A stretch of 64,000 bases of DNA, taken from positions 3,410,001 through 3,474,000 of the forward strand of contig JAJHTX010000003.1 in assembly GCA_032164295.1 (NCBI GenBank), written 5' to 3'. The position numbers were made by a program, and so were the translations under genes. Below the pieces are notes generated by a model. It was given only the letters and a program-made list of their open reading frames with translations, was not told the DNA's origin and ran no database searches. This DNA is from Inonotus obliquus. Lineage: Eukaryota; Basidiomycota; Agaricomycetes; Hymenochaetales; Hymenochaetaceae. Of this stretch, positions 37,761-53,811 are shown piece after piece. The stretch's first letter is position 1. Each line of letters opens with the position of its first letter.

Positions 37761-38349
37761 TTGCTTGTATATGTTAATTCGGGGAGGCGCTGATCTGGTA
37801 GGATCGGCGTCTAGATCTGGTTGTTACCTCGAAAGAGGGGTTAATCCAAATCCACTATGCTACTATAGCTGTGGAATCAATAGCTACCTTAGGGGATGTG
37901 TTAAGCTCCGTCTAAAACAACTATCAACCAACTTCTGTAGCCTGCGGTCTAATACTATTATCGTAATGTTAGTTATACTGATAACTAAGTGATAACCTTA
38001 ACTGTCTGTACTAACACTTGTTGGACACGATAAGAGAGGTATGAGAGATCAATGCTTACCACACTTTGATCAATTAGCACTCAGGCTGACGATAGGGAGA
38101 GACAGTCTAGCTGCTATCCGTATTTTACCTAAGCTTCAACTCACACTGTTGATTAGCTTAAGGAGTGTCGCTCTCAAGTACTTATTGGGTTCTTAGTGCG
38201 GAGGTTGTTTATCGATCAACTGGAGACTTTCTGTGAGGTTTACTCTGAGTCTCTGGACTTGGATTAAACTGCTGGGTTGGCCCTACGATGGTGAAAGGAT
38301 TGTGCTGAAATTTTGATTCGATTAGGAACGCCGATCGAAACTACCCCGG

Positions 38350-39126
38350 ATGGGACCGGTTAATTTCACTGGCCGGAGACGATCAGGATCGACAGCGAGA
38401 AGCGGAGAACACGCGAATCTAATACAATCCGAAGCCGACGATCAAGAAGCATCGGCTAGCAACGCTAATCCCGACGATCACACTAAACCTTCGCAAACGA
38501 TGCAGCAAGTACAGCAGCCTCCAACGGCTTGCTATAAATGCAGAAGAGTGCGACAGATCATCGAAGACCTACACAAGATAATACTACGGGAGGCAACGGG
38601 CATGTTGACATATCATGTGTCCAGCGAACGAGCAACAGCTTATCGAGAATATCACAATCCCCCGGAGGTCGTTCGAAATCGCACGAGGTCAACAATAGCA
38701 ATGGATACGGCAATAGGCATGCAACCAAAGACGCACTGGACAATAGTAGGAATCCACGACATATTAGCACTCGAGTGCCCAAGCACATTCGTGGAGATCA
38801 GTGCAGACTATGTTACGAACCGCCGCTCACCGATAACAGCGGCATGGGTTGCAAACACACTCAGGGAACTATGGGCATACTGCAAAGCTATTCGACTACA
38901 AGGAGACCTATACCTAGGCTGGAGAATACCTTCGAACGATACTCGACGAAGTGTACGGCTACTCATCGCCATAGGCACATATGTTAAACCACCTTGGTTT
39001 CCCCACGATGATATCCGATGTCGAATCACACTTGACGGCCCCGAACAAGAGTCCCGAGGCGACAAGCAAATCACAGCCTTCATAGCCCCAGATGCTATGC
39101 AACGGAACCCCGACGGAATTCCTTAA
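38350..39126 (+). CDS. LTR (U3)-encoded protein, 258 aa, 5' LTR copy
   Basis: ATG lies 58 bp inside the LTR. The protein has a basic/polar N-terminus, a CxxC motif (Cys61, Cys64) followed by an amphipathic helix (RRVRQIIEDLHKIILREAT), then a mixed alpha/beta region with WTIVGIHDI, FVEISADY, AWVANTLRELWAY and LLIAIGTYVKPP. No known domain was recognised. A 259-aa diverged homologue sits at the same place in the solo LTR (52489-53268). Lying upstream of the LTR promoter, this 5' copy should not be transcribed from the element itself; the 3' LTR copy would be at the 3' end of the genomic RNA, comparable in position to retroviral U3 genes. The function is unknown. Confidence 0.7.
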   Translation: MGPVNFTGRRRSGSTARSGEHANLIQSEADDQEASASNANPDDHTKPSQTMQQVQQPPTACYKCRRVRQIIEDLHKIILREATGMLTYHVSSERATAYREYHNPPEVVRNRTRSTIAMDTAIGMQPKTHWTIVGIHDILALECPSTFVEISADYVTNRRSPITAAWVANTLRELWAYCKAIRLQGDLYLGWRIPSNDTRRSVRLLIAIGTYVKPPWFPHDDIRCRITLDGPEQESRGDKQITAFIAPDAMQRNPDGIP

Positions 39127-39206
39127 ATGCACGAGCAACTGCGGACGAGCGAACTCTAACTACGGCGCAGCCATGCAAAACCAATGGCATACGAACACGC
39201 ATTCAA

Positions 39207-39340
39207 TGACTCACTCACTGACTCACTCCATGCACAGGGCGCAGCACAAGGCCGACCCCGAGCATAGGTTTCAATTCAGTTCAAGTCAAGATGAGTCAAC
39301 GCCGAGTCATCATCCTGCACAGGGCGCAGTCGATGAGTCA
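39207..39340 (+). promoter_or_regulatory. Cluster of four TGASTCA (Gcn4/AP-1-type bZIP) sites in LTR U3
   Basis: TGACTCA at 39207-39213 and 39219-39225 and TGAGTCA at 39292-39298 and 39334-39340, all upstream of the TATA box at 39457. In fungi this 7-mer is the binding site of Gcn4/CPC1, which activates genes in amino-acid starvation. The same sites occur in the 3' LTR (offset 12,372). Confidence 0.6.
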
Positions 39341-39456
39341 ATCCGCAGCAGAACAATGGAATTACCAGACGAGTTTGGAAGCTAGAACAACGAATCAGAT
39401 CGAGAGTAGGAACTACGGAGCGTAGGAAGTGGTCCGTCCACAACATGAGGAAAAGG

Positions 39457-39464
39457 TATAAATA
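39457..39464 (+). promoter_or_regulatory. LTR TATA box
   Basis: TATAAATA, 27-34 bp before the predicted RNA start at about 39491. That start coincides with the first base of the segment complementary to the primer-binding position. The diverged solo LTR has TATAAATA at the equivalent place (52248-52241, minus). Confidence 0.75.
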
Positions 39465-39860
39465 GTTGTAGACTTAGACCGTAGCTCTCCATCTTTCTTT
39501 CGATCGTCTTGTACATCGAGTCCTCTTAGGCATCTAGCTTCTAATCTGAAGACCACCTAATCTGCTTAACCTCTCTTACTCTACGGCGTGGAACGATTGA
39601 TTAGTCGTCCACCGACTAGGGAAGCTTACGAACGGCAGTCGACACTGTCCTACTAGTCTGTCAACGAGGTTGAGGCCCGACTTGATCAGCTAAACGAAAA
39701 CGTCCGAGGCAACGCTTATTATACTTGGGAATCTGCCCTGCTTGTGAAAACCGAGTAGGCTCCGGAAACTCTTAGAAAAGCATCGCCGAACCCGTAACAC
39801 TGGTCTCAGTCCTACTGTGGTTACTGTATAGTCCCTTTAGGGCGAGCGTTTTCTAACATT

Positions 39861-39876
39861 CGATCGAAAGAAAGAT
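39861..39876 (+). other. Primer-binding position, complementary to the RNA 5' end (self-priming)
   Basis: CGATCGAAAGAAAGAT begins 2 nt after the 5' LTR. Its exact reverse complement ATCTTTCTTTCGATCG lies at 39491-39506, 27 bp after the TATA box. In Tf1/sushi-type chromoviruses the 5' end of the RNA folds back onto this place and is cut to prime cDNA synthesis. I recognise no tRNA 3'-end complement here. Confidence 0.8.
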
Positions 39877-40418
39877 CTCCTTCGGGAATCTCAGTAGATC
39901 AGTGTTATCGCTTTCTAACATACGAAGAAGGAAAGATCCACTCGCAATTGGGAGTGTAATAACCAACAGCGTCCAACGCTAGTGAAAGGTGCACGTCACT
40001 ACCGTTCTACAAATTACTCACATCATTATCAAATTAGCCACTGTTATTCTTTACTGGGCTTGCGTAGCAAACGTTAGTCAGGAAGAGTATCAGTTGTATT
40101 CACCCAACTTCGACTTGAGCAGTTGTAATTGCCAGCCACTCGTCGAAGAACCATTACCTGCAGTTCCTACACACGTAGTCGAGCTACAGTGAAACCAGCA
40201 CCGATACGATACACGATCAAGTGTCCCATCGCACATCGAATCGAGTACAAGTCTACTAGAGTCACCTTCATCGGAAGTCGACTGACTCGTAGCTAGTTGA
40301 AGACTGATTCAGAAGGAAACCTGGGCTTACAGGAGGAGAAAAGAATCTGACAACTACGAAGAACATTATCCAGGAAGGATACGAAGTCAACTAAAGAAGC
40401 CAATTCGCTTATCGATAT

Positions 40419-41300
40419 ATGCAACATCAACGACGTAGTAACGGTCGAAGCAACCTACCAAGAGGTCCACGCAACGACACACAAGAACAGCCAGAACGTC
40501 GAGGCAACAATCGAAACGCAAGACAAGCACGAGAGTTGACAAGGGAATACGAAACCCTAGCAAGGATTGCGACACTCGAAAGACAAGTGATCGCACAACA
40601 CAACAGACAAGAGTTATTGGAGATCCACGAGGAACAACGTCAAATCGAAATCGACGAAATCAAATTCTTAACGAGAAGAATTATAGCAGCCGTCGAAGGA
40701 CTCCAAGACAACGTTATCGCAGGAAGCACGCCAGCAAACTTACAGAGGTCTAATCTCCAGGCAGAGCAAACCGCTACAGGAGAAGGAGTTACAGTATCTG
40801 GACTAGCCAAGGATCTCGAGGAATTCGAGCAATCGACAAGACATCGATTCTTCGTCGAACGAACGTTAATCAACGGACTTGTTGATAGAACAAATCAGCT
40901 AGAAGAGCAGAACAAGAAGCTCGACGACCAGTACCAACAACTCACAGAGTTAATCGGAAATATCCAGAGAGAACACATCGAAACAACTCAACGCATTCAA
41001 GAAACACGCAACGAAATCCAAAGGTCATTGGAAAGTAACGAATCGATAGACTCAGGCGAAACGCACATCGAACAGTTCACCTTCATTCCACGTGAACAGA
41101 TCGAAGAAGTCTTGACAAGAATCCGTAACTTGACATTGGAAGAAGAACCCGCGACAGTATCAAGCGGCGTACAGACAAGCGTACCAATCGTTGAAACATT
41201 CGAAACAACTCTATTACCGATCAGACCACCTCGCGTAGTAGCATTTACCGACAATGGCAACACCTCCAACACCAGATCAACTACAAGCTCGGATCAATGA
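40419..41300 (+). CDS. Pre-gag coiled-coil ORF of the chromovirus, 293 aa
   Basis: Basic, Arg/Asn/Gln-rich N-terminus (MQHQRRSNGRSNLPRGPRND), then long heptad-like stretches (EYETLARIATLERQVIAQHN, DQYQQLTELIGNIQREHIE) predicting coiled coil, and an acidic C-terminus. It overlaps the start of gag by 47 nt in a different frame (gag is +1 relative to it). No known domain. It could be an RNA-binding or structural partner of Gag, or an N-terminal Gag part joined by +1 frameshifting or reinitiation. The gag ATG has A at -3 and G at +4, favouring separate initiation. Confidence 0.75.
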   Translation: MQHQRRSNGRSNLPRGPRNDTQEQPERRGNNRNARQARELTREYETLARIATLERQVIAQHNRQELLEIHEEQRQIEIDEIKFLTRRIIAAVEGLQDNVIAGSTPANLQRSNLQAEQTATGEGVTVSGLAKDLEEFEQSTRHRFFVERTLINGLVDRTNQLEEQNKKLDDQYQQLTELIGNIQREHIETTQRIQETRNEIQRSLESNESIDSGETHIEQFTFIPREQIEEVLTRIRNLTLEEEPATVSSGVQTSVPIVETFETTLLPIRPPRVVAFTDNGNTSNTRSTTSSDQ

Positions 41301-42369
41301 GCTTACTAGTCGAATGGCAAGATTGTCGATCAAACTACCAAAGTTTCTAGGCGCACGAGACGAAAGTATCGATCAATGGGTAGACAGGAGTGTGGCGAAA
41401 TTAGTGTCAAACGGAATTAAGGACGAGAAGGAAATTGCGAACGCGCTATTCCTAGCTATCGAGGGAGATGCATTCAATTGGTTCCTCGAAAAGCAACTCA
41501 CCGTATCATTCGACGCTACCACCGGAGCACTCAAAAGCTTACCTACCGTCGTAGATGCAGCAGGAGCGGTTGCGAAACCTCCTACCGCTATGTTCGCATC
41601 ACTCAGGGATATGATTCAATTCATTCGTACCAAAGCAGGCAAAACCGTTCCACAAGAACTCGAGGCCCTGAACAAGATATTCAATATCAAACAGGCCAGC
41701 AAACCTATCGAGAGTTACAATCACGCGTTCAGGCAACTACGAACGAAGATTGCAAGCACAGTGGACGAGAATACGATCAAGCACTGCTACATCAAAGGAT
41801 TGGATCAATGGCTTATCAATCGCGTACTCGCACACGACATGGAAGCATTCACGAAATTCGGTTACGAACAATGGATGGCAATAACGGAGCAATATGCAGT
41901 CATGAACAAGACAAAGGCTCAGCTCACGCAAGGAACATATCAACCACGGTATTCATTTCATGGACAACCGAGGTACGAGCAGCCTACGAGACTAGAAAGG
42001 GATCCGAACGCAATGGACATCGATGCAATCCGAGGCTTGCCGAAGAAGGGATCATCAGGATGTTACAATTGCGGAAGACAGGGTCACTATGCAAGCAAAT
42101 GCCCCGAACCGAGAAGATCACCTACGTCTAAAGGAGCACTAGGTAATCACCGCCAACATCGTCGACCAAACACGTCTAAAGGAGCACGTGGAAGATCGTC
42201 GAAGCATCACAAGAAGAATAGAAGAACCATGCACGCGAGAATTCAAGAAGCCGAATCCGAGGAAGAAGAAGACGACGATCATACGAACAAGCGAAACGTC
42301 AATCCCAAACCACGCGACCAGAAGCCTAACAAAGGAAAGGCTAAGGCACAAGGTCAGGGAAAAGACTAG
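41254..42369 (+). CDS. gag: Gag polyprotein of the chromovirus, 371 aa
   Basis: Retrotransposon Gag core at residues ~30-215 (IKLPKFLGARDESIDQWVDR, FNWFLEKQ, MIQFIRTKAG, IESYNHAFRQLRTKIAS, MAITEQYAVM), followed by a CCHC zinc knuckle CYNCGRQGHYASKC at residues ~270-283 and a long basic/acidic tail. It binds genomic RNA and forms the virus-like particle. The stop TAG (42367-42369) lies 3 nt after the slippery heptamer GGGAAAA, so Gag-Pol is predicted to form by -1 frameshifting. The upstream coiled-coil ORF overlaps its start. Confidence 0.92.
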   Translation: MATPPTPDQLQARINELTSRMARLSIKLPKFLGARDESIDQWVDRSVAKLVSNGIKDEKEIANALFLAIEGDAFNWFLEKQLTVSFDATTGALKSLPTVVDAAGAVAKPPTAMFASLRDMIQFIRTKAGKTVPQELEALNKIFNIKQASKPIESYNHAFRQLRTKIASTVDENTIKHCYIKGLDQWLINRVLAHDMEAFTKFGYEQWMAITEQYAVMNKTKAQLTQGTYQPRYSFHGQPRYEQPTRLERDPNAMDIDAIRGLPKKGSSGCYNCGRQGHYASKCPEPRRSPTSKGALGNHRQHRRPNTSKGARGRSSKHHKKNRRTMHARIQEAESEEEEDDDHTNKRNVNPKPRDQKPNKGKAKAQGQGKD

Positions 42370-42399
42370 CACCTCCGCTCAAGACTGCGAAGCGAGAGG
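42357..42399 (+). promoter_or_regulatory. Predicted -1 ribosomal frameshift signal between gag and pol
   Basis: Heptamer G GGA AAA (42357-42363) sits in the gag frame as X XXY YYZ, 3 nt before the gag stop. After a -1 slip, reading continues AGA CTA GCA and stays open into pol. Eight nt further on, CCTCCGCT (42372-42379) can pair with AGCG-A-GAGG (42391-42399, one bulged A) around an 11-nt loop, the usual spacing for a stimulatory stem. Confidence 0.75.
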
Positions 42400-42419
42400 G
42401 TAATAAGGATTGCGAAGAA

Positions 42420-45400
42420 ATGTACAGTAAAGGATTACCGACATATGCATTACACCCAAGATTGCCTATCAGGATTCTTGTGGGAACGCAAACCTTAGCA
42501 GTCAAAGCACTTATCGACTCAGGAGCAACATGCAGTACTATTCATCCGGAGTTAGTACGGAAGCACGACTTACCACGACGAACGCTATCACAACCTAGAC
42601 CGTTGCGAAATGCAGATGGAACAGCAAACCGAAAAGGAGCAATCAAGTACGAAGTGGACGCACTTATATTTGACGGAATCAAGCCCATCGGTCAAACTCT
42701 GGCAGTCGCACATACGGGAACGGATCAGATCATACTAGGCATCGATTATTTGGGCAAGGCCAACCCAATCATCGATTGGAAGGAACAAGTCATGGAAGGA
42801 AATGGACAAACGATACCATTCGAGCTCAGTATCGTTCGAGCAGAGTCGACAAGCAAGAAACGGAAACGAAAACGGAAAAGTACAAACCGTAATCGTGGAG
42901 GCAGAACAAATAAGCCCTCACCGCGTTCAGGCAGCACCAATAAGACCGAACGGCGGAGTAGCAATGGCAATAAGACTACGAAAGGCAGAGTCAATAAGAC
43001 CTTACGATCGAACCAGAGTAGCAATGGCAATAAGGCTACACGAAACGACCCAAGCGTCAACGGACCAAAGGGAAATCTGGTAACCGACAAGCGCAAATCG
43101 GTAGACGATCAGGAGAACAGTTGTAATCGCGAACAACGAAGGAAAGCTAGGCCCAATCGAATAGGAGAGGCGACTAGTCAGGAGCGACCATCCTGGTACG
43201 GGAATGAAAGAGCCATTACCCAAGACGAAGGCACGAAGACATCGAAAGCTCTATACAAGACAGAGAAACGAAAGGTTCCACAAGTAGATCAACGATCGCA
43301 GCATGGCAGTGGCAATAAGACCAAGCAGGCACAAGGCAGTCGCAATAAGACCTTGAAGAGTCGAGACGATCAACGACCGAAACCACAAGGCATTGGCAAT
43401 AAGCCCTTGAACAGTCAACGCAGTACCAATAAGACGTTGCCGTTGGATAATAAATCACCTGTTACGCGCAAGACAGCCTATGGCAGGAAGACGAAAGCTA
43501 AAGCTACGAAGAGCCCTGGATCCGACTCATCTGACAACTCAGAAACCGACAGCGATAGCGACAACGATAGTGGAATATGGATTAGGCCAGACCTCAACAC
43601 GAAGGAAAGGCAAAGGGACGACCGCCCTAGAGAAGGCAGAAACCGAAGCGAAAGCCGATCGACGAGAAACGAAACAAGGAACGTTTCACCACCAAGAATT
43701 AGACCACGATCAGGAAGTCAATTCAGCAATGCTCCAAGGAAGAGAGCACGGACGCCAGAAGGTGAACGAACGTCGAACGCACCAAGACAAAGCAGCACCA
43801 ATAAGACTTTGCAGTCTAGTCAGAGCATTGGCAATAAGACTCGACAAGACTGGGCAGTACCAATAAGGCCCGAAGACGAATCAAGATCGCCTATATCAAG
43901 ATTCGGGAATGAACAGGCAGAAAGACCTGATACACGAGTACAGAGTCAAGGCAGTCGCAATAAGCCCTTGCAACCGAGTACGACATCGCTAGGAAAGCGA
44001 AGACAAGAATCACCGTCAGTCGAACGGAAGACAACGAAACCACGAGTAGTCAAGGAAGACCCTACATTCAAGCACTGGAAAGGTTATCTTCGAGAAGGAG
44101 AAGAAGCCGTAGGAAACTTTGATCCGAAAGGCACATGGATTATGCCACGAAAGGAACGATTCGAAGACAAACCGATACTAGGACATCGGCGAAGACAGTC
44201 TATCGATAGTACAGGAAGTACACGAACACGAAGCCCCGCACCGAAAAGAACAAGGTGGGAGCACACGGATCAAGACGAAGTTATGGACGAACTGCAAGAA
44301 CCAGGAGGAACCCAACCTCAAGAAGAAATGCATATCGAACGTATGGTAACCAACGAACCATCACCTATTCAACAACGAATAGCGTATCTCGCCACCGAGG
44401 CTCGAGGTAAATCAAAACCCTTACTGCAGAAGGAGGATCTCGCAGAAATGTTTGAGATCAAACGAAATTGGTCACCAAATACGAATCGACAGCATCGCCA
44501 AGAGAAGCAACCATTGAACAAGGTTAGTTCAGTAGCGCAGCAATACTCGCAGCAGAAAGCAGCAGCAGAGGGATTGCTAGACACGCAGAAACGAGATTGG
44601 CGCAAACTGCTACCAAGGCAGATAGCAGACTATGCAGACGTATTCGATCCAGACAGGGCAAGACGACTACCAAGACATACGAAGTATGACATGGTCATAC
44701 ACCTCGATGAGAAGGAACCGTTACCGAAACCACGACCTATTATCAAGCTCACGCCAGTCGAACAGGAAGCACTGGACAACCATGTGGATGAGCTGATGAA
44801 GAAAGGATGGATTACCAAGGTCGAACCACACGAACCATGCCCAGTAGCATCACCCGTATTCTTTGTAGGAAAGAAGGACGGAGGGGCAAGAGTCGTAACG
44901 GACTATCGAGCGATAAACCAAATCACGATACCAGACCCGTACCCAATTCCAATCATGAATGGGTTACCAGACAAGTTGGCAGGCAACAATTACTTCTTCA
45001 CATTGGACATGCGATCCGGATACCACAACTTGCGTATCAAGGAAGGAGATGAATGGAAAGCGGCATTCCGAGTCGGCAACGCAATCTACAAGCCACTCGT
45101 TATGATGTTCGGAATGAAGAACTCACCCGCAATATTCCAACGATTCATGAACGACAACTTTGAGCAATGGCTACGAAGTCAGGAGATACTTATCTACCTG
45201 GACGACATCATCGGAAAGGCAAAGACTGAGGAGGAACACTGGAAACTCCTACGAGCAGTCTTGAAGAAATGCCGAGAACTCGATATCTACTTGAAGATCG
45301 AGAAGTGCCATTTCCTACAGAAGAAGCTAGACTACCTAGGCTTCATAGTGGGCGACAAGGGAGTACAAATGGACCCGTACAAACTCAAAGCAATCGCAGA

Positions 45401-47771
45401 ATGGCCTACACCAACGACGAAACGGGAGATCAGGAAGTTCCAAGGATTTTGCAACTTCTATCGAAGATTCGTGAAGAACTATGCAGAGCGCATACACCCA
45501 ATTAACGAACTCACCAAGAAGGATAGGAAGTTCGTATGGACAACTGAATGTCAGCAAGCATTCGAGGACATCAAGCAAGCGTTTCAAACGGAAATAACGC
45601 TAGGTTATCCGAACCACGATAAACCATTCATCCTCGAGACAGATGCATCGAAATTTGCGATCGGAGCTTTACTCCAACAAGAAGACGACAAGGGCGAACT
45701 ACGACCGTTAGCCACAATGTCGAAGCAGTTGTCAGGAGCACAACTCAACTGGCCAGTTCACGAAAAAGAGATGTTCGCAATTGTTCATTCACTCAACGAA
45801 TGGAGACACTTGCTCGAAGGAACGAAACATCCTTTTGTCATTCGAACGGATCACAAGAACCTGCAATGGTTCATGACAGGACAGAACCTATCTGAGAAGC
45901 TGAAACGATGGATGCTAAAGCTATCCCAGTTTAACTTCAAGATGATACATTGGCCAGGCAAGGAGAACAAAGCCGACGCACTATCAAGGCGAACCGATTA
46001 CGAAATCGGCAAAGATACAGAGAAGATCACTATGCTACCAGCAGACCGCATACAGCAGCAAACGTTGAAACGAACGGAAGTCGCAGGACTATACGAGTTG
46101 AAAACTACGTCAGTCAGAATCACGGACCCGATACTTCGAACTATTCGAAAGGACTATGCGACGAAGGAGGCACAAACCGAATGGAACGTCATACGGAATA
46201 CGAAAGACAGAAGCCACACCTACACGGATGGAACTCGTTATGTAGATGGAAAGTTATGGATCCCGCCGAACGCCAACCTACGAAGTCTACTAATGCGAAG
46301 GCACCATGACCACACAACTGCAGGCCATCCCGGAGTAGCCAAAACCACTGAGCTTCTGGAGAGACGATACTATTGGCCAAACCTTCGATCGGACGTCCGA
46401 GACTACGTAACAACTTGCGACGCATGTCAGCGATCAAAGCCTCTTCGGCAAAATCGCGAGCCACCGATTCAACCGATATCCCCACCTGAAAGGCCATGGG
46501 AAGCCATTTCCTGTGACCTAGTTACAGACCTACCAGTCAGTACCGAGGGATATGACACCATATTGGTTGTTGTGGATAGACTTACCAAGATGGGGAGGTT
46601 CATCCCTACGACGGGTGTACCGAATGCCAAACGCATTGCACAGATGTTCATCCAAAACATCTTCAAGCATTATGGGACCCCAAAGGTTGTACTCTCCGAC
46701 AGAGGAAGCAACTTCACGGCGCAGTTTTTGAAGGAGTTCTGCCGACTCCTCGAAATCGATTGGAAAACTAGCACCGCGTACCACCCACAAACCGATGGTC
46801 AAACAGAGCGACTGAACCAAACGATGGAACAGTACTTACGCTGCTATGTGTCCTACCGACAGACAGATTGGGCACATTACTTGGATCTCGCAGAATTCGC
46901 CTATAACAACAGACAGCATTCAGCGACACGTCAATCACCATTCTACACGTTGTACGGATGGAATCCAACAACTGACTTTGCCAGTCACGACGAAAGCAAC
47001 GTCCCAGAAGCACAAGATTACCGAGAGGAGCTTCAACAAGCGCAGCGACAAGCCTATGCAAGCATTAAGCAGGCTAACGAAGCGATGAAGTTATATGCAG
47101 ACTTACATCGAGGGAAGCTACCAGATTATCGACCTGGAGACGAAGTGATGTTGGATATGAAGAACTTAGCAAGACTCGAACCGACGAAGAAACTAGCCAT
47201 GAAATGGGCAGGGCCTTATAAAGTCGACAAGGCCGTGGGGAAGGTTTCATTTCGACTGAAACTTCCTGAAACAATGGCAATTCACCCAGTATTTCATGCG
47301 AGTCTATTGAAGCCATACAAGCGGAAAGAATTCCCAGGACGTAAACAACTTACGGAACCACCACCAGTAGAAGTGGAAGGCGCAGCCGAATACGAAGTCG
47401 AAGCAGTTCAAGATACCAAACTGCGGCGCAGCAAGGTGCAATACCTAGTCAGATGGAAAGGCTATGCAGAAACAACATGGGAACCGCTGGAGAACCTGAA
47501 GCACACGTACAAGCTAGTTGAGGACTTCCACAAGAAGTACCCTCAGGCGCAGAAGCCACGGAACCTTACGCAATGGTTATCCGCGAGGCGCCGGAATAGG
47601 AAACAAACGAGTCACGAGGACACGGAAGAATCCTCCGACGGATCGGAAGGATCGACGTCAGACTCAGAAGGTAATACTGATACCGAAAGCACAGTATCAG
47701 AAGACAGTCAACGCAGCATGCGCAGTCGAGGAAGGACTACGCGCAGCAGCAGACGACTACGCCCGCAGTAG
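42420..47771 (+). CDS. pol: Pol polyprotein: protease, RT, RNase H, integrase, chromodomain
   Basis: The open frame continues upstream to the frameshift site; 42420 is the first ATG. Aspartic protease at residues ~15-110 with active-site LIDSGATCS. A very long Lys/Arg/Ser-rich linker (residues ~140-640) contains about ten repeats of an xNK[TP]xx motif. Reverse transcriptase ~750-960 has GKKDGGARVVTDYRAIN and catalytic YLDD (~924). RNase H ~1070-1190 has ETDASKFAIGALL. Integrase has an HHCC finger (HHDHTTAGHPG...CDACQRSK, ~1295-1345) and DDE residues in CDLVTDLP, LSDRGSNF and QTDGQTERLNQ. A C-terminal chromodomain (~1655-1715) has VQYLVRWKGYAETTWEP with the aromatic cage pattern. No internal stops. 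The protease-RT linker is unusually long for the family. Confidence 0.96.
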   Translation: MYSKGLPTYALHPRLPIRILVGTQTLAVKALIDSGATCSTIHPELVRKHDLPRRTLSQPRPLRNADGTANRKGAIKYEVDALIFDGIKPIGQTLAVAHTGTDQIILGIDYLGKANPIIDWKEQVMEGNGQTIPFELSIVRAESTSKKRKRKRKSTNRNRGGRTNKPSPRSGSTNKTERRSSNGNKTTKGRVNKTLRSNQSSNGNKATRNDPSVNGPKGNLVTDKRKSVDDQENSCNREQRRKARPNRIGEATSQERPSWYGNERAITQDEGTKTSKALYKTEKRKVPQVDQRSQHGSGNKTKQAQGSRNKTLKSRDDQRPKPQGIGNKPLNSQRSTNKTLPLDNKSPVTRKTAYGRKTKAKATKSPGSDSSDNSETDSDSDNDSGIWIRPDLNTKERQRDDRPREGRNRSESRSTRNETRNVSPPRIRPRSGSQFSNAPRKRARTPEGERTSNAPRQSSTNKTLQSSQSIGNKTRQDWAVPIRPEDESRSPISRFGNEQAERPDTRVQSQGSRNKPLQPSTTSLGKRRQESPSVERKTTKPRVVKEDPTFKHWKGYLREGEEAVGNFDPKGTWIMPRKERFEDKPILGHRRRQSIDSTGSTRTRSPAPKRTRWEHTDQDEVMDELQEPGGTQPQEEMHIERMVTNEPSPIQQRIAYLATEARGKSKPLLQKEDLAEMFEIKRNWSPNTNRQHRQEKQPLNKVSSVAQQYSQQKAAAEGLLDTQKRDWRKLLPRQIADYADVFDPDRARRLPRHTKYDMVIHLDEKEPLPKPRPIIKLTPVEQEALDNHVDELMKKGWITKVEPHEPCPVASPVFFVGKKDGGARVVTDYRAINQITIPDPYPIPIMNGLPDKLAGNNYFFTLDMRSGYHNLRIKEGDEWKAAFRVGNAIYKPLVMMFGMKNSPAIFQRFMNDNFEQWLRSQEILIYLDDIIGKAKTEEEHWKLLRAVLKKCRELDIYLKIEKCHFLQKKLDYLGFIVGDKGVQMDPYKLKAIAEWPTPTTKREIRKFQGFCNFYRRFVKNYAERIHPINELTKKDRKFVWTTECQQAFEDIKQAFQTEITLGYPNHDKPFILETDASKFAIGALLQQEDDKGELRPLATMSKQLSGAQLNWPVHEKEMFAIVHSLNEWRHLLEGTKHPFVIRTDHKNLQWFMTGQNLSEKLKRWMLKLSQFNFKMIHWPGKENKADALSRRTDYEIGKDTEKITMLPADRIQQQTLKRTEVAGLYELKTTSVRITDPILRTIRKDYATKEAQTEWNVIRNTKDRSHTYTDGTRYVDGKLWIPPNANLRSLLMRRHHDHTTAGHPGVAKTTELLERRYYWPNLRSDVRDYVTTCDACQRSKPLRQNREPPIQPISPPERPWEAISCDLVTDLPVSTEGYDTILVVVDRLTKMGRFIPTTGVPNAKRIAQMFIQNIFKHYGTPKVVLSDRGSNFTAQFLKEFCRLLEIDWKTSTAYHPQTDGQTERLNQTMEQYLRCYVSYRQTDWAHYLDLAEFAYNNRQHSATRQSPFYTLYGWNPTTDFASHDESNVPEAQDYREELQQAQRQAYASIKQANEAMKLYADLHRGKLPDYRPGDEVMLDMKNLARLEPTKKLAMKWAGPYKVDKAVGKVSFRLKLPETMAIHPVFHASLLKPYKRKEFPGRKQLTEPPPVEVEGAAEYEVEAVQDTKLRRSKVQYLVRWKGYAETTWEPLENLKHTYKLVEDFHKKYPQAQKPRNLTQWLSARRRNRKQTSHEDTEESSDGSEGSTSDSEGNTDTESTVSEDSQRSMRSRGRTTRSSRRLRPQ

Positions 47772-48083
47772 GCATAACTGCGGCACAGCAAGTAGTACTC
47801 ATCCGCAGCTGATCACAACAGATCGCAGCAGATGATGACATTCTCGCAGCAATGCTTGAGAATTTACGAAGTCACGACAAGTCATGAACAGTCACGAATG
47901 AACGAGAGACACTGCGGCACAGTATACGCAGTAGAGGTCAAGTCATATCGAAAACAACTGGACCGATCACCCAGTCATACGCAGTAACGACGCAAAGCTA
48001 TAAGAACAAGCAGTAACGACCTATGAACGGCACCAACGCCAGAAACAACTCTCATTCGACAAGAAACAAGTCTACATTTCGAA
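47772..48083 (+). other. Chromovirus spacer rich in CGCAG/GCAG motifs
   Basis: Non-coding spacer between pol and the next ORF, with many CGCAG or GCAG words and repeated agtcacgaa-like motifs. No terminator or known element recognised; it may carry signals for expression of the downstream ORF. Confidence 0.4.
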
Positions 48084-49100
48084 ATGCCACTACTCGAAAC
48101 ACTTGCAGAAGTACAGCATGCACAACTCAATGTCACAGAAGTCGACATACAGTCACGACCCGACAAATATCAATGGCCACAGCTAGACGACAGGGAGAAC
48201 ACCGAGATGTTATGGGATGACATCATACCCTCGAACGTCGGCAGATATTTCGACGATTTCATGGACAAGATCAGCATGGCACATCAACGCAGCATGGGAT
48301 ACAATATGCTGCTAATGCCACCGATATTCTTTGGATCTTGGTTTGCCATGACTATAGAAGCTTACAATTCAGTGAGAAGACTCAATGACGACGCTTACAT
48401 CGCATATGCTCTAGATCTCAGCACAGCGATTCTATCGTATCAACCGTTGCTGTTGTCACAACCGGAAACAGTCAACAATTGCGTCGCATTACTCTATGCA
48501 GCAACGAGGATCTGCGCATATCGAGTCGAGCTCACAGAAGCATTCGAACACAAGGTCATGCGATGGTCGCTTATCCACTGTATTACAGCCAAAGAACGCG
48601 ACTACATCGAGTACATCGCGCAGCAGCAAATTCAATATGCACGACTCAAGAGACGTTTCTACTCTACGATCAACATCCTTAGACAAACATGGGAACGAAC
48701 AAAGGCACCAGGAAGGTCTATCCCATGGGACACACCTCATCGAGACTTACCATACTTGGAGGCGTGGAAACTGATCGAGAACGAAGAAACGGAACGCCGC
48801 AACAAAGCGAAAGAAGCAGCGGAAGGATTATGGGAGAACCCTCCGGACAAACTAGACCAATCTATTTGTTGGCCTTACGACGAGGACTACCTCCAGGCAC
48901 TCAATAGTGCGGAATACCGCCTTAGATACACCCTAGGCACAGTACTACATCCTAAAGATAGTAGCTGGTTCACGGACGTATATCAATATCCGCAGAAGCT
49001 ACAATCCCGGAAACCCGAGGACGAGACATCCAATAGTCGCAAGAGATCCCACGATGACACAGAAGAATTCGATCTAGCGCCGACAGATGACGAAGCATAA
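48084..49100 (+). CDS. Chromovirus accessory ORF after pol, 338 aa, unknown
   Basis: Open reading frame with coding character like gag and pol. The middle is helical with one hydrophobic stretch (MLLMPPIFFGSWFAMTI, residues ~75-91), then a long charged helical region (AEAFEHKVMRWSLIH-like and RDYIEYIAQQQIQYARLKRR segments). The C-terminus is acidic with a basic patch (NSRKRSHDD), perhaps a nuclear signal. No recognised domain; it is not a reverse transcriptase, integrase or RNase H. In the position of env in complex retroviruses, but without a signal peptide or clear fusion-protein features. Its own start and expression signals are unknown. Confidence 0.65.
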   Translation: MPLLETLAEVQHAQLNVTEVDIQSRPDKYQWPQLDDRENTEMLWDDIIPSNVGRYFDDFMDKISMAHQRSMGYNMLLMPPIFFGSWFAMTIEAYNSVRRLNDDAYIAYALDLSTAILSYQPLLLSQPETVNNCVALLYAATRICAYRVELTEAFEHKVMRWSLIHCITAKERDYIEYIAQQQIQYARLKRRFYSTINILRQTWERTKAPGRSIPWDTPHRDLPYLEAWKLIENEETERRNKAKEAAEGLWENPPDKLDQSICWPYDEDYLQALNSAEYRLRYTLGTVLHPKDSSWFTDVYQYPQKLQSRKPEDETSNSRKRSHDDTEEFDLAPTDDEA

Positions 49101-49117
49101 CTATGCAACTCATTCTT

Positions 49118-49204
49118 CTATGGTATTTATTGACAGGACAACACATGCACACCCTATGGTATCTATTCAACATTATGCAACCCGAAATCCCCTATGGTAT
49201 TTAT
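49118..49204 (+). repeat. Three spaced copies of CTATGGTATYTAT
   Basis: CTATGGTAT starts at 49118, 49154 and 49192 (spacing 36 and 38), each followed by T or C then TAT, between the two post-pol ORFs. Possible regulatory repeats for the following ORF; no known factor recognised. Confidence 0.5.
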
Positions 49205-49525
49205 GAATGCCAAGTCAACTGCGCACATACATCGAAGAATCACGGGACTATTACGAAGCGACTACGGGCAAGATAATTCGTACACGAATGACAGGATATG
49301 GGAAATCCGCAGCACGACAATAATAGAGTGCGACAGCGAAGCACAGATCGCAGCAAGACAATTGAAAACCGCAGCAACCGCAGCACGGTGAACCCGGGGA
49401 AGACTAGAACAGAGTCACGAAGGGTACGAGTTGGAAACGCATAAATAGAGGCAGGAATCCGACAGGAGAGCCTCAGCTGGAAAAGCACAAGTAGTCTAGA
49501 ACCACCAAACGAAACCTCGAACACC

Positions 49526-50290
49526 ATGAACACCTACTACACCGCACTCCTCATCATCACGGTCTGCACCACAGCCGTAGTGATCGTGGACGTCGTACGA
49601 CGAGCGCTGGAACGCTGGGAGCAGTTAGTAGTGAGGATAGAGGAAATAAACAGAGAGCAGCACGAGATGAGGATAGAGGAGTCACGAAGGACCCAAGAAA
49701 TAAGACGAGCACGAGCCCAAGGCCGTAACCTCACGGTCGAGGCACTCCACCACCTAAGCGCAACGTCCTTCGGACGCATCGAAGACCGCCTTCAAGAAGT
49801 ACTACAGAGCATCCCCGACCGAGCAATCGAAGACCTAGCAACATCGAGCGCAGCAAGACTCGATCAGCTGGTCGATGACGTCGCAAGGATGCGGGCGGCA
49901 ATAGAAGAACTCGAAGCGATCAGGAACACGGCAGAAGCACAACAGGTACAGGCACCGGTAGAAGCACCACCGGCAACGCCCGACGACCTATACGTCGACC
50001 TACCCGGCTACGTACAACCCGAACCAGAAGCATGGCCAGAAGCAGACGCGGCAGAAGCAGAAGCAAACGCGTGGGGCGGCCCGTACATCCTACAGGGTCC
50101 GCAACCACCGGCTAATGCCCCGTGGTGGCCGATGCGAGGAAGACAACGGGTGTCGGAAAGGTCAGGCCTGCACAACCGGGCAGCCGAATCGCCAGAGTCA
50201 GGCGAAGGCTCAGTAAGCCCCGGTGAGAGCCGAGATCGCGAGTGGACAGCGCGTGGATGGAATGACGGTCAGACCCATTGGGAGGACTGA
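49526..50290 (+). CDS. Chromovirus accessory ORF, membrane-anchored coiled-coil protein, 254 aa
   Basis: Residues ~5-23 (YTALLIITVCTTAVVIVDV) form a strong transmembrane helix at the very N-terminus, followed by Arg and a coiled coil (ERWEQLVVRIEEINREQHEM and on to ~residue 140). Next come a Pro/Ala/Glu-rich region (QVQAPVEAPPATPDD, YVQPEPEAWPEADAA) and a Ser/Gly/Arg tail. No cysteines typical of envelope ectodomains and no known domain. It is the last ORF before the polypurine tract. It might tether particles to a membrane or make oligomers; this is speculation from layout only. Confidence 0.65.
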   Translation: MNTYYTALLIITVCTTAVVIVDVVRRALERWEQLVVRIEEINREQHEMRIEESRRTQEIRRARAQGRNLTVEALHHLSATSFGRIEDRLQEVLQSIPDRAIEDLATSSAARLDQLVDDVARMRAAIEELEAIRNTAEAQQVQAPVEAPPATPDDLYVDLPGYVQPEPEAWPEADAAEAEANAWGGPYILQGPQPPANAPWWPMRGRQRVSERSGLHNRAAESPESGEGSVSPGESRDREWTARGWNDGQTHWED

Positions 50291-50650
50291 ACCGGCAGGG
50301 CAAGAGGTGCAGAGGGAGGAAAAATAATAAAGAAAATTTTCTTATTTTGCTTTTGGTGTGACAAGTCTAAGTCCACTAAAGTGAAACTTAAAGGAAATTT
50401 GCAAGAAGAAACAACAATTCGACTGGGAGTCAAGCTATCTCCCTTTACTTTCTTCAAATTACCCTCGAAGCACGCTCTCAAATCGAGCTCAGAATACGAT
50501 TTCAGACTTCGAAAAGTCTTTCAACTGCATCAAGCACACGAATTTCGAAGGAAATACGAAGCAACATCATCACTAATTTCGCACACGATCCTACGATCTC
50601 ATCGCAATTTCAACCCAATTGAGATCTTTTCCCTATCGAGTAAAGATCTT

Positions 50651-50663
50651 GGAGGGGGGCGAG
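50651..50663 (+). other. Polypurine tract
   Basis: GGAGGGGGGCGAG directly before the 3' LTR start (TGAAAGG at 50664); the expected plus-strand primer position. One C interrupts the run. Confidence 0.8.
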
Positions 50664-52230
50664 TGAAAGGATTGTGCTGAAATTTTGATTCGATTAGGAA
50701 CGCCGATCGAAACTACCCCGGATGGGACCGGTTAATTTCACTGGCCGGAGACGATCAGGATCGACAGCGAGAAGCGGAGAACACGCGAATCTAATACAAT
50801 CCGAAGCCGACGATCAAGAAGCATCGGCTAGCAACGCTAATCCCGACGATCACACTAAACCTTCGCAAACGATGCAGCAAGTACAGCAGCCTCCAACGGC
50901 TTGCTATAAATGCAGAAGAGTGCGACAGATCATCGAAGACCTACACAAGATAATACTACGGGAGGCAACGGGCATGTTGACATATCATGTGTCCAGCGAA
51001 CGAGCAACAGCTTATCGAGAATATCACAATCCCCCGGAGGTCGTTCGAAATCGCACGAGGTCAACAATAGCAATGGATACGGCAATAGGCATGCAACCAA
51101 AGACGCACTGGACAATAGTAGGAATCCACGACATATTAGCACTCGAGTGCCCAAGCACATTCGTGGAGATCAGTGCAGACTATGTTACGAACCGCCGCTC
51201 ACCGATAACAGCGGCATGGGTTGCAAACACACTCAGGGAACTATGGGCATACTGCAAAGCTATTCGACTACAAGGAGACCTATACCTAGGCTGGAGAATA
51301 CCTTCGAACGATACTCGACGAAGTGTACGGCTACTCATCGCCATAGGCACATATGTTAAACCACCTTGGTTTCCCCACGATGATATCCGATGTCGAATCA
51401 CACTTGACGGCCCCGAACAAGAGTCCCGAGGCGACAAGCAAATCACAGCCTTCATAGCCCCAGATGCTATGCAACGGAACCCCGACGGAATTCCTTAAAT
51501 GCACGAGCAACTGCGGACGAGCGAACTCTAACTACGGCGCAGCCATGCAAAACCAATGGCATACGAACACGCATTCAATGACTCACTCACTGACTCACTC
51601 CATGCACAGGGCGCAGCACAAGGCCGACCCCGAGCATAGGTTTCAATTCAGTTCAAGTCAAGATGAGTCAACGCCGAGTCATCATCCTGCACAGGGCGCA
51701 GTCGATGAGTCAATCCGCAGCAGAACAATGGAATTACCAGACGAGTTTGGAAGCTAGAACAACGAATCAGATCGAGAGTAGGAACTACGGAGCGTAGGAA
51801 GTGGTCCGTCCACAACATGAGGAAAAGGTATAAATAGTTGTAGACTTAGACCGTAGCTCTCCATCTTTCTTTCGATCGTCTTGTACATCGAGTCCTCTTA
51901 GGCATCTAGCTTCTAATCTGAAGACCACCTAATCTGCTTAACCTCTCTTACTCTACGGCGTGGAACGATTGATTAGTCGTCCACCGACTAGGGAAGCTTA
52001 CGAACGGCAGTCGACACTGTCCTACTAGTCTGTCAACGAGGTTGAGGCCCGACTTGATCAGCTAAACGAAAACGTCCGAGGCAACGCTTATTATACTTGG
52101 GAATCTGCCCTGCTTGTGAAAACCGAGTAGGCTCCGGAAACTCTTAGAAAAGCATCGCCGAACCCGTAACACTGGTCTCAGTCCTACTGTGGTTACTGTA
52201 TAGTCCCTTTAGGGCGAGCGTTTTCTAACA
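50664..52230 (+). repeat. 3' LTR of the chromovirus
   Basis: Same length and, on the parts compared, the same sequence as the 5' LTR; ends TTTTCTAACA and is followed by GATGG. Its U3 would be transcribed as the 3' end of the genomic RNA. Confidence 0.95.
50722..51498 (+). CDS. LTR (U3)-encoded protein, 258 aa, 3' LTR copy
   Basis: Identical translation to the 5' LTR copy. In this position the ORF lies inside the predicted element transcript, downstream of all internal ORFs and 58 bp after the LTR start, so this is the copy that could be expressed from the element. Motifs: CxxC at 61/64, helix to ~83, WTIVGIHDI, AWVANTLRELWAY, LLIAIGTYVKPP. Whether it is read from a separate or spliced RNA is not visible. 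Confidence 0.72.
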   Translation: MGPVNFTGRRRSGSTARSGEHANLIQSEADDQEASASNANPDDHTKPSQTMQQVQQPPTACYKCRRVRQIIEDLHKIILREATGMLTYHVSSERATAYREYHNPPEVVRNRTRSTIAMDTAIGMQPKTHWTIVGIHDILALECPSTFVEISADYVTNRRSPITAAWVANTLRELWAYCKAIRLQGDLYLGWRIPSNDTRRSVRLLIAIGTYVKPPWFPHDDIRCRITLDGPEQESRGDKQITAFIAPDAMQRNPDGIP

Positions 52231-52240
52231 GATGGCCTCC

Positions 52241-52248
52241 TATTTATA
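52241..52248 (-). promoter_or_regulatory. TATA box of the solo LTR
   Basis: TATAAATA on the minus strand, same octamer as in the chromovirus LTR. The chromovirus inserted 6-10 bp downstream of it. Confidence 0.6.
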
Positions 52249-52488
52249 CTATTTTACATGCTTGCCTAGTATAGGAATTATCTACTGTTGGTCCGTTCGC
52301 TTCAATGTAACTACTTTCAGACCTAGTCATACTCGATGCTAGCTGCTGTGCATTGCCGTATGACTTGTTCATATCGGTTCCGGTCATACCTGTTTTCCTA
52401 TGACTCTAAATACCTTATGTCATATTCCTATTACCTTTCAGTCCTCGTCTTAGTAATCTATCCCCATCCACTTAGTCTGGTGCTGCCC

Positions 52489-53268
52489 CTAGTGCATTAC
52501 ATGGTCGAGGTTCATAACGTGTGATCGGCTTCGAAGCCGTCGATCAAACTCTGCCATACTTGGTAATGTTTGGGTCACGTGCCATACAGGTGTCTGTATC
52601 GGCTCTGTCTGTGTTCCTACACTTCGCCATCTTGGTAATGTTATTGCCCCAGGTGTGTCGATGTTATTAATTACTTGCTGCACTCTAATGTATCCTGGTG
52701 CTACTGCTATGTCTGCTAGTGATCTGCCTCGGATTCCTTTGATCCTTATTATTCCTCCATGTCGACCTTCCTTTACTTCTACAACTGTTCTTCCTCCTGT
52801 CAGTAATTGCTTAAGTCTTTGGACTAGATAGTCGGTCCACTTGTAGGCTGACTCTCTTGCGATATGTTCAGGTTCATTCCTGTATGGTATATCGATGTCT
52901 AGTACTGCTACATCGCATTGGTGATTATCTTGTTCTGAAGCTACGTTTCGTATTCCTATTGCCAATAGGAAGTAATGATTATCGTATGAGAGTAATCTGA
53001 CTTCTCGTTCATAAGCCTTCCGTACAGTTGTATTCGGTTCATAGTTCATTACAATGAATCGTCTCCTAATCATAATGTCCGATTGTCCCTTGACGATTGC
53101 TGAGTATGTTATTTCCTTCAGTATCTCTCGAAGTAGCTTTTCTGCTATCTCATGTGCTGGTCTACATATGCTACAATACTGTAACACTCCTGGTCTTGGT
53201 GTTGCTGGTATTATTGGCTGTTGTAGTGCTCGTGTAACCGCATTCAACCTTTCCTGTATCCAATTCAT
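52489..53268 (-). CDS. Solo-LTR-encoded protein, 259 aa, homologue of the chromovirus LTR ORF
   Basis: Intact frame starting 62 bp inside the solo LTR (MNWIQERLNAVTRALQQP). A CxxC at Cys32/Cys35 is followed by a helix (RPAHEIAEKLLREILKEIT) that aligns without gaps with the helix after the CxxC of the chromovirus LTR ORF (8 of 19 identical). Later matching blocks are FLLAIGIRNV, VAVLDIDIPY, AYKWTDYLVQRLKQLL and DIAVAPGYIRV. The two proteins have nearly the same length. The frame runs open 5' of the ATG to 53343, beyond the LTR, so the ATG at 53268 is chosen from LTR position. No known domain. The conserved layout in two LTR families argues for a real protein. Confidence 0.68.
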   Translation of the reverse strand: MNWIQERLNAVTRALQQPIIPATPRPGVLQYCSICRPAHEIAEKLLREILKEITYSAIVKGQSDIMIRRRFIVMNYEPNTTVRKAYEREVRLLSYDNHYFLLAIGIRNVASEQDNHQCDVAVLDIDIPYRNEPEHIARESAYKWTDYLVQRLKQLLTGGRTVVEVKEGRHGGIIRIKGIRGRSLADIAVAPGYIRVQQVINNIDTPGAITLPRWRSVGTQTEPIQTPVWHVTQTLPSMAEFDRRLRSRSHVMNLDHVMH

Positions 53269-53811
53269 ATTGGAGTTACTTCGATTATCAATCAGGCTTA
53301 GTAATAGTGAATTGTATTGCTTTTCTAACAGTATATGTGTCAAAAATCGCTGGATCTTGGAATTTATTGGACATTTTTTCTATTTTTTCTTACCATCTTA
53401 TTCAGAATAGAAAAAAATAATTTTTGGACATTTTATCAGATTTTTTGTAAAGTTGTGGAAGGCAGGATGAGCCATCGAATGTCAAAATAAAAGGTGAGAC
53501 AGATGAATCCGCGCGTCGATCACTGGGACAACTCGGCAAGGACCGTGGGAATGCACGGAAATTTCATAGCCCGTGCCAGACCCCACTGAGGAAATAAATA
53601 TTGTCCAGTCATTATTTTGCTAAGTTAACTATAGTATACATCGAGGGATAGGAACCGGCCATTCTACAATATGCTCGTGGGTAGGTGGGATGCAATGAAT
53701 GTATACGGGTATGAACGACTGTTGATGAGTTGCATAACGAGAGCGATTGAGTATGGGCACAGACTAACAGCAAGGATTATAACGACAAAATGAGGCAAAG
53801 GCTGCTTCACC

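What the first reader, a model, noticed from the sequence alone, without database searches (positions are those of the whole stretch)
38350..53268. A protein family encoded inside LTRs, kept in two different Ty3-type families
The chromovirus LTR holds a 258-aa ORF 58 bp from its start, and the unrelated-looking solo LTR holds a 259-aa ORF 62 bp from its start. Both have CxxC followed by a gap-free 19-residue helix with 8 identities (I, E, L, IL, E and T conserved) and the same later blocks ending [AI]xxGYIxV/IGTYVKP. The DNA is too diverged for chance retention of a frame without selection. Being in U3, the expressed copy is at the 3' end of the genomic RNA, as with U3 genes of complex retroviruses. 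I know of no described fungal LTR-encoded family of this kind.
Basis: partly seen in the sequence, partly recalled or inferred. Interest (0 to 1): 0.87.

Follow-up and report, generated by a model that had tools for sequence, protein, structure and literature searches.

The report
Gene hidden inside retrotransposon terminal repeats
Three related families of fungal retrotransposons carry a protein gene inside their terminal repeats, in the part upstream of their own promoter, and selection has preserved the protein, much as some retroviruses keep accessory genes there.

Summary
The finding is real. The chromovirus LTR (family A) holds a 258-aa ORF 58 bp from its start. The neighbouring solo LTR (family B) holds a 259-aa ORF 62 bp from its start. 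A third family, C, has a 253-261-aa ORF 43 bp from its LTR start, 43-45% identical to B; six C elements were read with both LTRs. All three LTRs carry a TATA box 33-34 bp before a sequence complementary to the primer-binding site (Tf1-type self-priming). This places the ORF wholly in U3, so the genomic RNA would carry it once, at its 3' end. Purifying selection is strong: dN/dS is 0.11-0.16 in C and 0.22-0.30 in B. In A only the core shows it (N/S 0.43 of neutral, p=6e-4). In C the constraint is close to that on gag and pol. Eight database proteins on short contigs belong to the B/C family. The link between A and B/C rests on the CxxC-helix block (0 of 300 shuffles, in two tests); the 'later blocks' are not above chance. 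No known domain or fold was found. Best reading: a U3-encoded accessory gene of fungal chromoviruses, anatomically like MMTV sag. Expression and biochemical role are untested.

The parts
38292..39858 (+). 5' LTR of chromovirus A (1567 bp)
   Evidence: identical to 50664-52230; TG...CA
50664..52230 (+). 3' LTR of chromovirus A
38287..38291 (.). target-site duplication GATGG of A, left copy
   Evidence: read output
52231..52235 (.). target-site duplication GATGG of A, right copy
   Evidence: read output
38350..39126 (+). LTR ORF (258 aa), 5' LTR copy; predicted silent because it lies upstream of the LTR promoter
50722..51498 (+). LTR ORF (258 aa), 3' LTR copy; the one that genomic RNA would carry
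39457..39463 (+). TATA box of the LTR promoter (LTR position 1166); same in the 3' LTR at 51829
39491..39506 (+). 16-nt self-primer complement (LTR position 1200-1215), predicted 5' end of the genomic RNA, U3/R border; 3' LTR copy at 51863-51878
   Evidence: exact reverse complement of 39861-39876
39861..39876 (+). primer-binding site, complementary to LTR 1200-1215
50651..50663 (+). polypurine tract before the 3' LTR
   Evidence: output
40419..41300 (+). ORF of 293 aa before gag
   Evidence: no Pfam match above its cut-off
41254..42369 (+). gag (Ty3_capsid below cut-off, zinc knuckle above cut-off)
42420..47771 (+). pol: protease, RT, RNase H, integrase, chromodomain
48084..49100 (+). ORF of 338 aa, no domain found
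49526..50290 (+). ORF of 254 aa with an N-terminal hydrophobic (transmembrane) stretch; C elements have a comparable gene in the same place
52231..53330 (-). solo LTR of family B, LTR positions 1-1099
   Evidence: 98.5% to a B LTR
37772..38291 (-). solo LTR of family B, LTR positions 1095-1613, cut off by the insertion of A
   Evidence: 98.5% to a B LTR; target duplication GTATA at 37767-37771 and 53331-53335
52489..53268 (-). LTR ORF of family B (259 aa) with CxxC-helix

Best explanation
It is a U3-encoded accessory gene of a group of fungal Ty3-type chromoviruses. Shown: the ORF lies at the same place (43-62 bp from the LTR start) in three families, upstream of the TATA box and of the predicted 5' end of the genomic RNA, and it evolves as a protein under purifying selection. 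Inferred: reverse transcription copies it into both LTRs, but in the integrated element only the copy in the 3' LTR lies within the element's own transcript. It is translated from a subgenomic, spliced or reinitiated message together with, or after, the small membrane-anchored gene just before the 3' LTR. Inferred, weaker: the protein is soluble and basic, with one folded domain that starts with CxxC plus a helix and has a conserved third cysteine (HxxC in most B/C members, a possible zinc site). Of the roles considered I think a regulatory or accessory one in the element's own cycle most likely, acting in trans (for example on LTR transcription, RNA handling or silencing) rather than in catalysis. 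I give that role about 0.4.
For: Position: ORF at LTR 59, 63 and 44 in A, B and C. TATA lies 33-34 bp before an exact complement of the PBS of 16, 11 and 11 nt in A, B and C. Selection: ML dN/dS is 0.109-0.157 in six C pairs (likelihood ratio 33-91) and 0.22-0.30 in five B pairs (24-40). Against each LTR's own noncoding mutation spectrum, core N/S is 0.23 (C, p=6e-17), 0.42 (B, p=2e-8) and 0.43 (A, p=6e-4) of neutral. In six C elements the ORF (0.23-0.25) is nearly as constrained as gag (0.19) and pol (0.17). Spread: 62 C copies match a 123-aa C fragment at 90% or more, and 18 B copies match at 97% or more. 147 A copies were scored of 207 candidates. Eight further database proteins match the B/C profile with E 1e-75 to 4e-38. 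Some carriers are young: LTR pairs are 99.9-100% identical.
Against: No expression data. In A the pairwise dN/dS is only 0.33-0.60, with a likelihood ratio above 3.84 in two of five pairs, and its N and C tails look neutral. Singletons are no less constrained than shared changes in A and B (Fisher p 0.85, 0.69; C 0.065), so the expected relaxation after insertion is not seen clearly. Some copies have lost the ATG: two of 23 B LTRs, both from one young element, and three of 16 A proteins. B copies hold as many stop changes as neutral (17 against 15.9). No fold or domain supports a function.
Confidence: 0.72

Rival explanations
1. A's ORF and the B/C ORF are not homologous: two unrelated genes came to lie in U3 independently.
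For: Outside the CxxC helix no similarity exceeds shuffles. A's N-tail is about 26 residues longer before CxxC. A's structure model is unusable.
Against: The CxxC-helix block beat 300 of 300 shuffles twice. The host pol genes are 42% identical and gag only 21%, so about 20% identity is what a gene of gag-like tempo would show. Same position in the LTR, similar length, and the same helix-strands-helix-strands order in both models, A's being of low confidence.
Confidence: 0.17
2. The U3 protein limits its own element: a copy-number or superinfection control whose dose would rise with the number of LTRs, as element-encoded inhibitors do in yeast Ty1 (recalled).
For: Each element has two copies and solo LTRs keep the ORF. 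One young B element lacks the ATG in both LTRs yet inserted, which would fit a protein that is not needed in cis.
Against: Solo and 5' LTR copies have no promoter upstream of the ORF within the LTR, so a dose effect needs outside transcription. Constraint close to gag and pol is more usual for a gene that helps the element.
Confidence: 0.2
3. The ORF is read first, from a message that starts at or before the LTR, so it is a leader gene rather than a 3'-terminal gene.
For: In C the open frame continues upstream of the 3' LTR for 41 codons, so the ORF need not start exactly at its LTR methionine there.
Against: TATA and the self-primer complement lie after the ORF in all three families. Only 43-62 bp of LTR precede it.
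Confidence: 0.06
4. The frame is a by-product of youth or of constraint on U3 DNA, not a gene.
For: A copies are young (at least 95% identical) and their dN/dS is weakly resolved.
Against: Third positions vary two to three times as much as second positions in all three families (A 0.217 against 0.124, B 0.469 against 0.206, C 0.379 against 0.115). B and C share 43-45% of residues. Homologous proteins occur in other database records.
Confidence: 0.05

Closest known systems
MMTV sag (superantigen gene in the U3 of the 3' LTR); passages of PMC12789967 seen
   Same: Whole ORF inside U3, so both LTRs hold it; the 3' copy is the one used. In MMTV it is expressed from a spliced message or a promoter just before the 3' LTR.
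   Different: Sag is a type II membrane protein of a mammalian retrovirus. The fungal ORFs show no transmembrane stretch in A or B. No sequence relation was found (one search matched nothing credible in the PDB).
HIV nef (partly in U3); passage of PMC12789967 seen; foamy virus Tas/Bet recalled
   Same: 3'-terminal accessory genes that run into U3.
   Different: They overlap U3 only in part and belong to Retroviridae; here the whole gene is in U3 of Ty3-type elements.
Additional ORFs (aORFs) of plant LTR retrotransposons and ORF3s of bdelloid rotifer elements (PMC7264820 abstract and sections 3-4, PMC5408684 passages, PMC11963269 passages)
   Same: Extra genes beyond gag and pol, some with transmembrane parts.
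   Different: In what I read they lie between pol and the 3' LTR or elsewhere in the internal region, not inside the LTR.
Fungal chromoviruses of Novikova et al. 2010 (PMC2864245 section 5 and passages)
   Same: Ty3-type pol with chromodomain; 'additional ORF of unknown function' is drawn for some; Coprinus cinereus was in their survey.
   Different: The text I read mentions no ORF within an LTR; figures and supplements were not seen.
Tf1/Tj1 self-primed elements (PMC4600332 passages)
   Same: PBS complementary to the predicted 5' end of the element's own RNA.
   Different: No U3 gene is mentioned in the passages seen.

Membership tests
Ty3-type chromovirus (host elements A and C) | pol order protease-RT-RNase H-integrase with C-terminal chromodomain | tested here: met
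   A; C. In C the protease match is 26.8 bits, below its 28.2 cut-off. B was read only over a 901-bp integrase stretch.
Self-primed (Tf1-type) element | PBS complementary to a stretch of the LTR just downstream of TATA | tested here: met
   16, 11 and 11 nt exact, 33-34 bp after TATA, in A, B and C
Self-primed (Tf1-type) element | cleaved 5' RNA end serves as primer | not testable with these tools
   needs RNA mapping
U3-encoded accessory gene (as MMTV sag) | whole ORF within U3, upstream of the LTR promoter | tested here: met
   rests on sequence-predicted RNA start
U3-encoded accessory gene (as MMTV sag) | codon-level purifying selection | tested here: met
   B and C clear; A in its core only
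U3-encoded accessory gene (as MMTV sag) | expression from the 3' LTR copy | not testable with these tools
   no RNA data held
Homology to a protein of known structure (Nef or any other PDB chain) | sequence or fold similarity | tested here: inconclusive
One protein family across A, B and C | significant sequence similarity over the domain | tested here: inconclusive
   B-C met (43-45%). A to B/C significant only over the CxxC helix

The most novel reading that the evidence does not exclude
Fungal chromoviruses have an ancient, vertically kept U3 gene: a retrovirus-like accessory gene wholly inside the LTR of Ty3-type elements, shared by A, B, C and by elements behind the eight further database proteins, coupled to a membrane-anchored gene just before the 3' LTR. 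It encodes a trans-acting regulator, so that each LTR carries both the element's promoter and a regulator of the element.
Probability: 0.35. Interest if true: 0.86.

Novelty: new variant of a known kind. Interest (0 to 1): 0.74.

Why it matters
Accessory genes inside U3 are known from a few vertebrate retroviruses. A conserved one in fungal Ty3-type elements would show that the retroviral habit of placing late genes in the LTR exists, or arose separately, in retrotransposons. It also means that LTRs and solo LTRs, usually masked as non-coding repeats, can hold a selected gene, so similar genes may be overlooked elsewhere.
Full report
What is there. The window lies in an unnamed 36.07-Mb genome of 30 contigs. 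Element A runs from LTR 38292-39858 to LTR 50664-52230. The two LTRs are identical over 1567 bp, with TG...CA ends, target duplication GATGG and a polypurine tract before the 3' LTR. Between them lie an ORF of 293 aa, gag, a chromodomain pol, an ORF of 338 aa and an ORF of 254 aa with an N-terminal hydrophobic stretch. Each LTR holds a 258-aa ORF 58 bp from its start.

The second LTR of the finding belongs to another family, B. It is a solo LTR (target duplication GTATA) into which A inserted, at B position 1095-1099, so its pieces are 52231-53330 and 37772-38291. A landed between B's TATA box and B's predicted RNA start. Its 259-aa ORF starts 62 bp into the LTR. A full-length B element exists on contig C6: two B LTRs about 9.96 kb apart, 99.88% identical, with a 1328-aa pol frame between them.

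A third family. Searching with B's ORF gave 128 matches at E<=10: 18 at 97-100%, further and mostly decayed copies at about 60-90%, and a large set at 42-46%. That set is family C. Six C elements were read with both LTRs. The one examined first has LTRs of 1454 bp, 99.93% identical, and target duplication AAGGT. Its 253-aa ORF starts 43 bp into the LTR; in the other C elements the frame is 253-261 aa long, apart from one 3' copy (L054) broken by a stop. A 123-aa piece of the C ORF matches 62 places at 90% or more, 8 of them with a stop inside (counted by eye). For A, 147 of 207 candidates were scored; all are full length and at least 95% identical, 32 of 147 with in-frame stops (counted by eye).

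Where the RNA starts. In all three LTRs a TATA box is followed 33-34 bp later by an exact reverse complement of the bases just inside the 5' LTR: 16 nt in A, 11 nt in B and 11 nt in C (B positions there are shifted by two extra leading bases). This is the signature of Tf1/Tj1-type self-priming, in which the PBS pairs with the 5' end of the element's own RNA (passages of PMC4600332). The predicted RNA start is at about LTR position 1200 (A), 1116 (B) and 986 (C), well after the ORF ends. So the ORF lies wholly in U3. The 5' copy is upstream of the promoter, and the genomic RNA carries the 3' copy near its end. This is inference from sequence; no RNA was seen.

Is it a gene? ORFs of at least 250 aa arise in 1, 0 and 0 of 1000 dinucleotide-model random sequences of the three LTRs. 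Within families, third codon positions vary more than second ones (variable fraction 0.217 against 0.124 in A, 0.469 against 0.206 in B, 0.379 against 0.115 in C). Pairwise ML dN/dS on chosen pairs is 0.109-0.157 in six C pairs (likelihood ratio 33-91), 0.22-0.30 in five B pairs (24-40), and 0.33-0.60 in five A pairs (1.3-4.6, two above 3.84). Measured against the mutation spectrum of each LTR's own noncoding part, with CpG sites apart and stops left out, core N/S relative to neutral is 0.23 in C (p=6e-17), 0.42 in B (p=2e-8) and 0.43 in A (p=6e-4). A's tails are neutral, at 1.02 and 0.91. In six C elements the ORF (0.23-0.25) is close to gag (0.19) and pol (0.17). Points against: shared and singleton changes do not differ in A and B (Fisher p 0.85, 0.69) and only weakly in C (0.065). 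B's stop changes (17) equal the neutral expectation (15.9), as old copies decay, while C shows 3 against 7.8 and A 0 against 10.2, but the A copies had mostly been picked stop-free. Three of 16 A proteins and one B element (both LTRs) have lost the ATG.

One protein family? B and C certainly (43-45% identity). Eight more database proteins, on contigs of 586-1887 bp without an organism name, match the B/C profile at E 1e-75 to 4e-38 and 32-53% identity to C. In one of them (P0006) the residues before the start resemble the translated LTR start of C, which hints at an LTR there too; I did not see its DNA. A against B/C: BLASTP E is 0.017 and 0.024. hhalign gives E 0.0009 and 0.00066, scores 30.5 and 31.6 against best shuffles of 24.1 and 26.6 (300 each). 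The same test on the element's other four ORFs gave E 0.18-0.87. The signal is the CxxC helix. Without it, hhalign and global alignment are at shuffle level. By eye A's later cysteine block (C143...FVEISADY) can be laid on C121...IVDVDIAY of C; its best local score is ordinary (84 of 150 shuffles reach it). Position, length, related hosts (pol 42%, gag 21%) and the order of predicted helices and strands agree, but A's model is poor (pLDDT 40, pTM 0.40; C 62.5, 0.65). I put homology of A with B/C at about 0.83.

What it may do. No Pfam, NCBIfam, PDB-sequence or fold match is credible. A and B proteins are basic (pI 8.6, 9.5) and lack a transmembrane stretch. CxxC is kept in A, B, C and in the four P proteins that cover it (P0001, P0002, P0003, P0006), and a third cysteine (C121 of C) in A, B, C and in the seven P proteins that cover it, HxxC in most B/C members; a zinc site is my guess. 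Just before the 3' LTR, A has a 254-aa ORF with an N-terminal hydrophobic stretch. C has a comparable gene: a predicted 49-nt intron joins a hydrophobic first exon to an acidic, tryptophan-rich second one (192 aa). The intron sequence was found in four of five C elements looked at. So the 3' end looks like an accessory module: membrane-anchored gene plus U3 gene. I think a trans-acting accessory or regulatory role for the element most likely, with self-limitation as the main rival.

Known or new. MMTV's U3 encompasses the entire sag ORF, and HIV's holds part of nef (passages of PMC12789967). Additional ORFs of plant and rotifer elements lie in the internal region in what I read (PMC7264820 abstract and sections 3-4; PMC5408684 passages; PMC11963269 passages). 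Two fungal surveys, one of which lists Coprinus cinereus and the other Coprinopsis cinerea, mention no LTR-internal gene in the parts read (PMC2864245 passages and section 5; PMC3248453 passages). Nine answered literature searches showed no LTR-encoded protein of a fungal element in their listings. I did not see supplements, figures or subscription papers. It works like a U3 accessory gene of retroviruses in anatomy; it is not shown to be a member of any of those protein families.

Noticed in passing
L039+L040, 9918-10545 (contig C8, family C element): A gene just before the 3' LTR with a predicted 49-nt intron: hydrophobic N-terminal exon plus acidic, tryptophan-rich exon (192 aa). A has a 254-aa ORF with an N-terminal hydrophobic stretch in the same place.
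   Followed up: partly
L039+L040, 10552-11436: In C elements the LTR ORF's frame continues 41 codons upstream of its LTR methionine, across the polypurine tract, starting a few bases after the stop of the membrane gene.
   Followed up: partly
window 38287-38291 and 52231-52235: Chromovirus A inserted into the B solo LTR between B's TATA box and its predicted RNA start.
   Followed up: yes
L014 and L017 (contig C6): A young full-length B element (LTRs 99.88% identical) has ATA instead of ATG at the LTR ORF start in both LTRs, so it may have moved without its own copy of the protein.
   Followed up: no
window 40419-41300 and 48084-49100: Two more ORFs of A without a domain above cut-off (293 aa, whose best Pfam match, Kbp-5, lies below its cut-off; 338 aa).
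   Followed up: no
window about 49440: A TATA-like CATAAATAG about 86 bp before the 254-aa ORF, seen by eye in the output: possible internal promoter.
   Followed up: no
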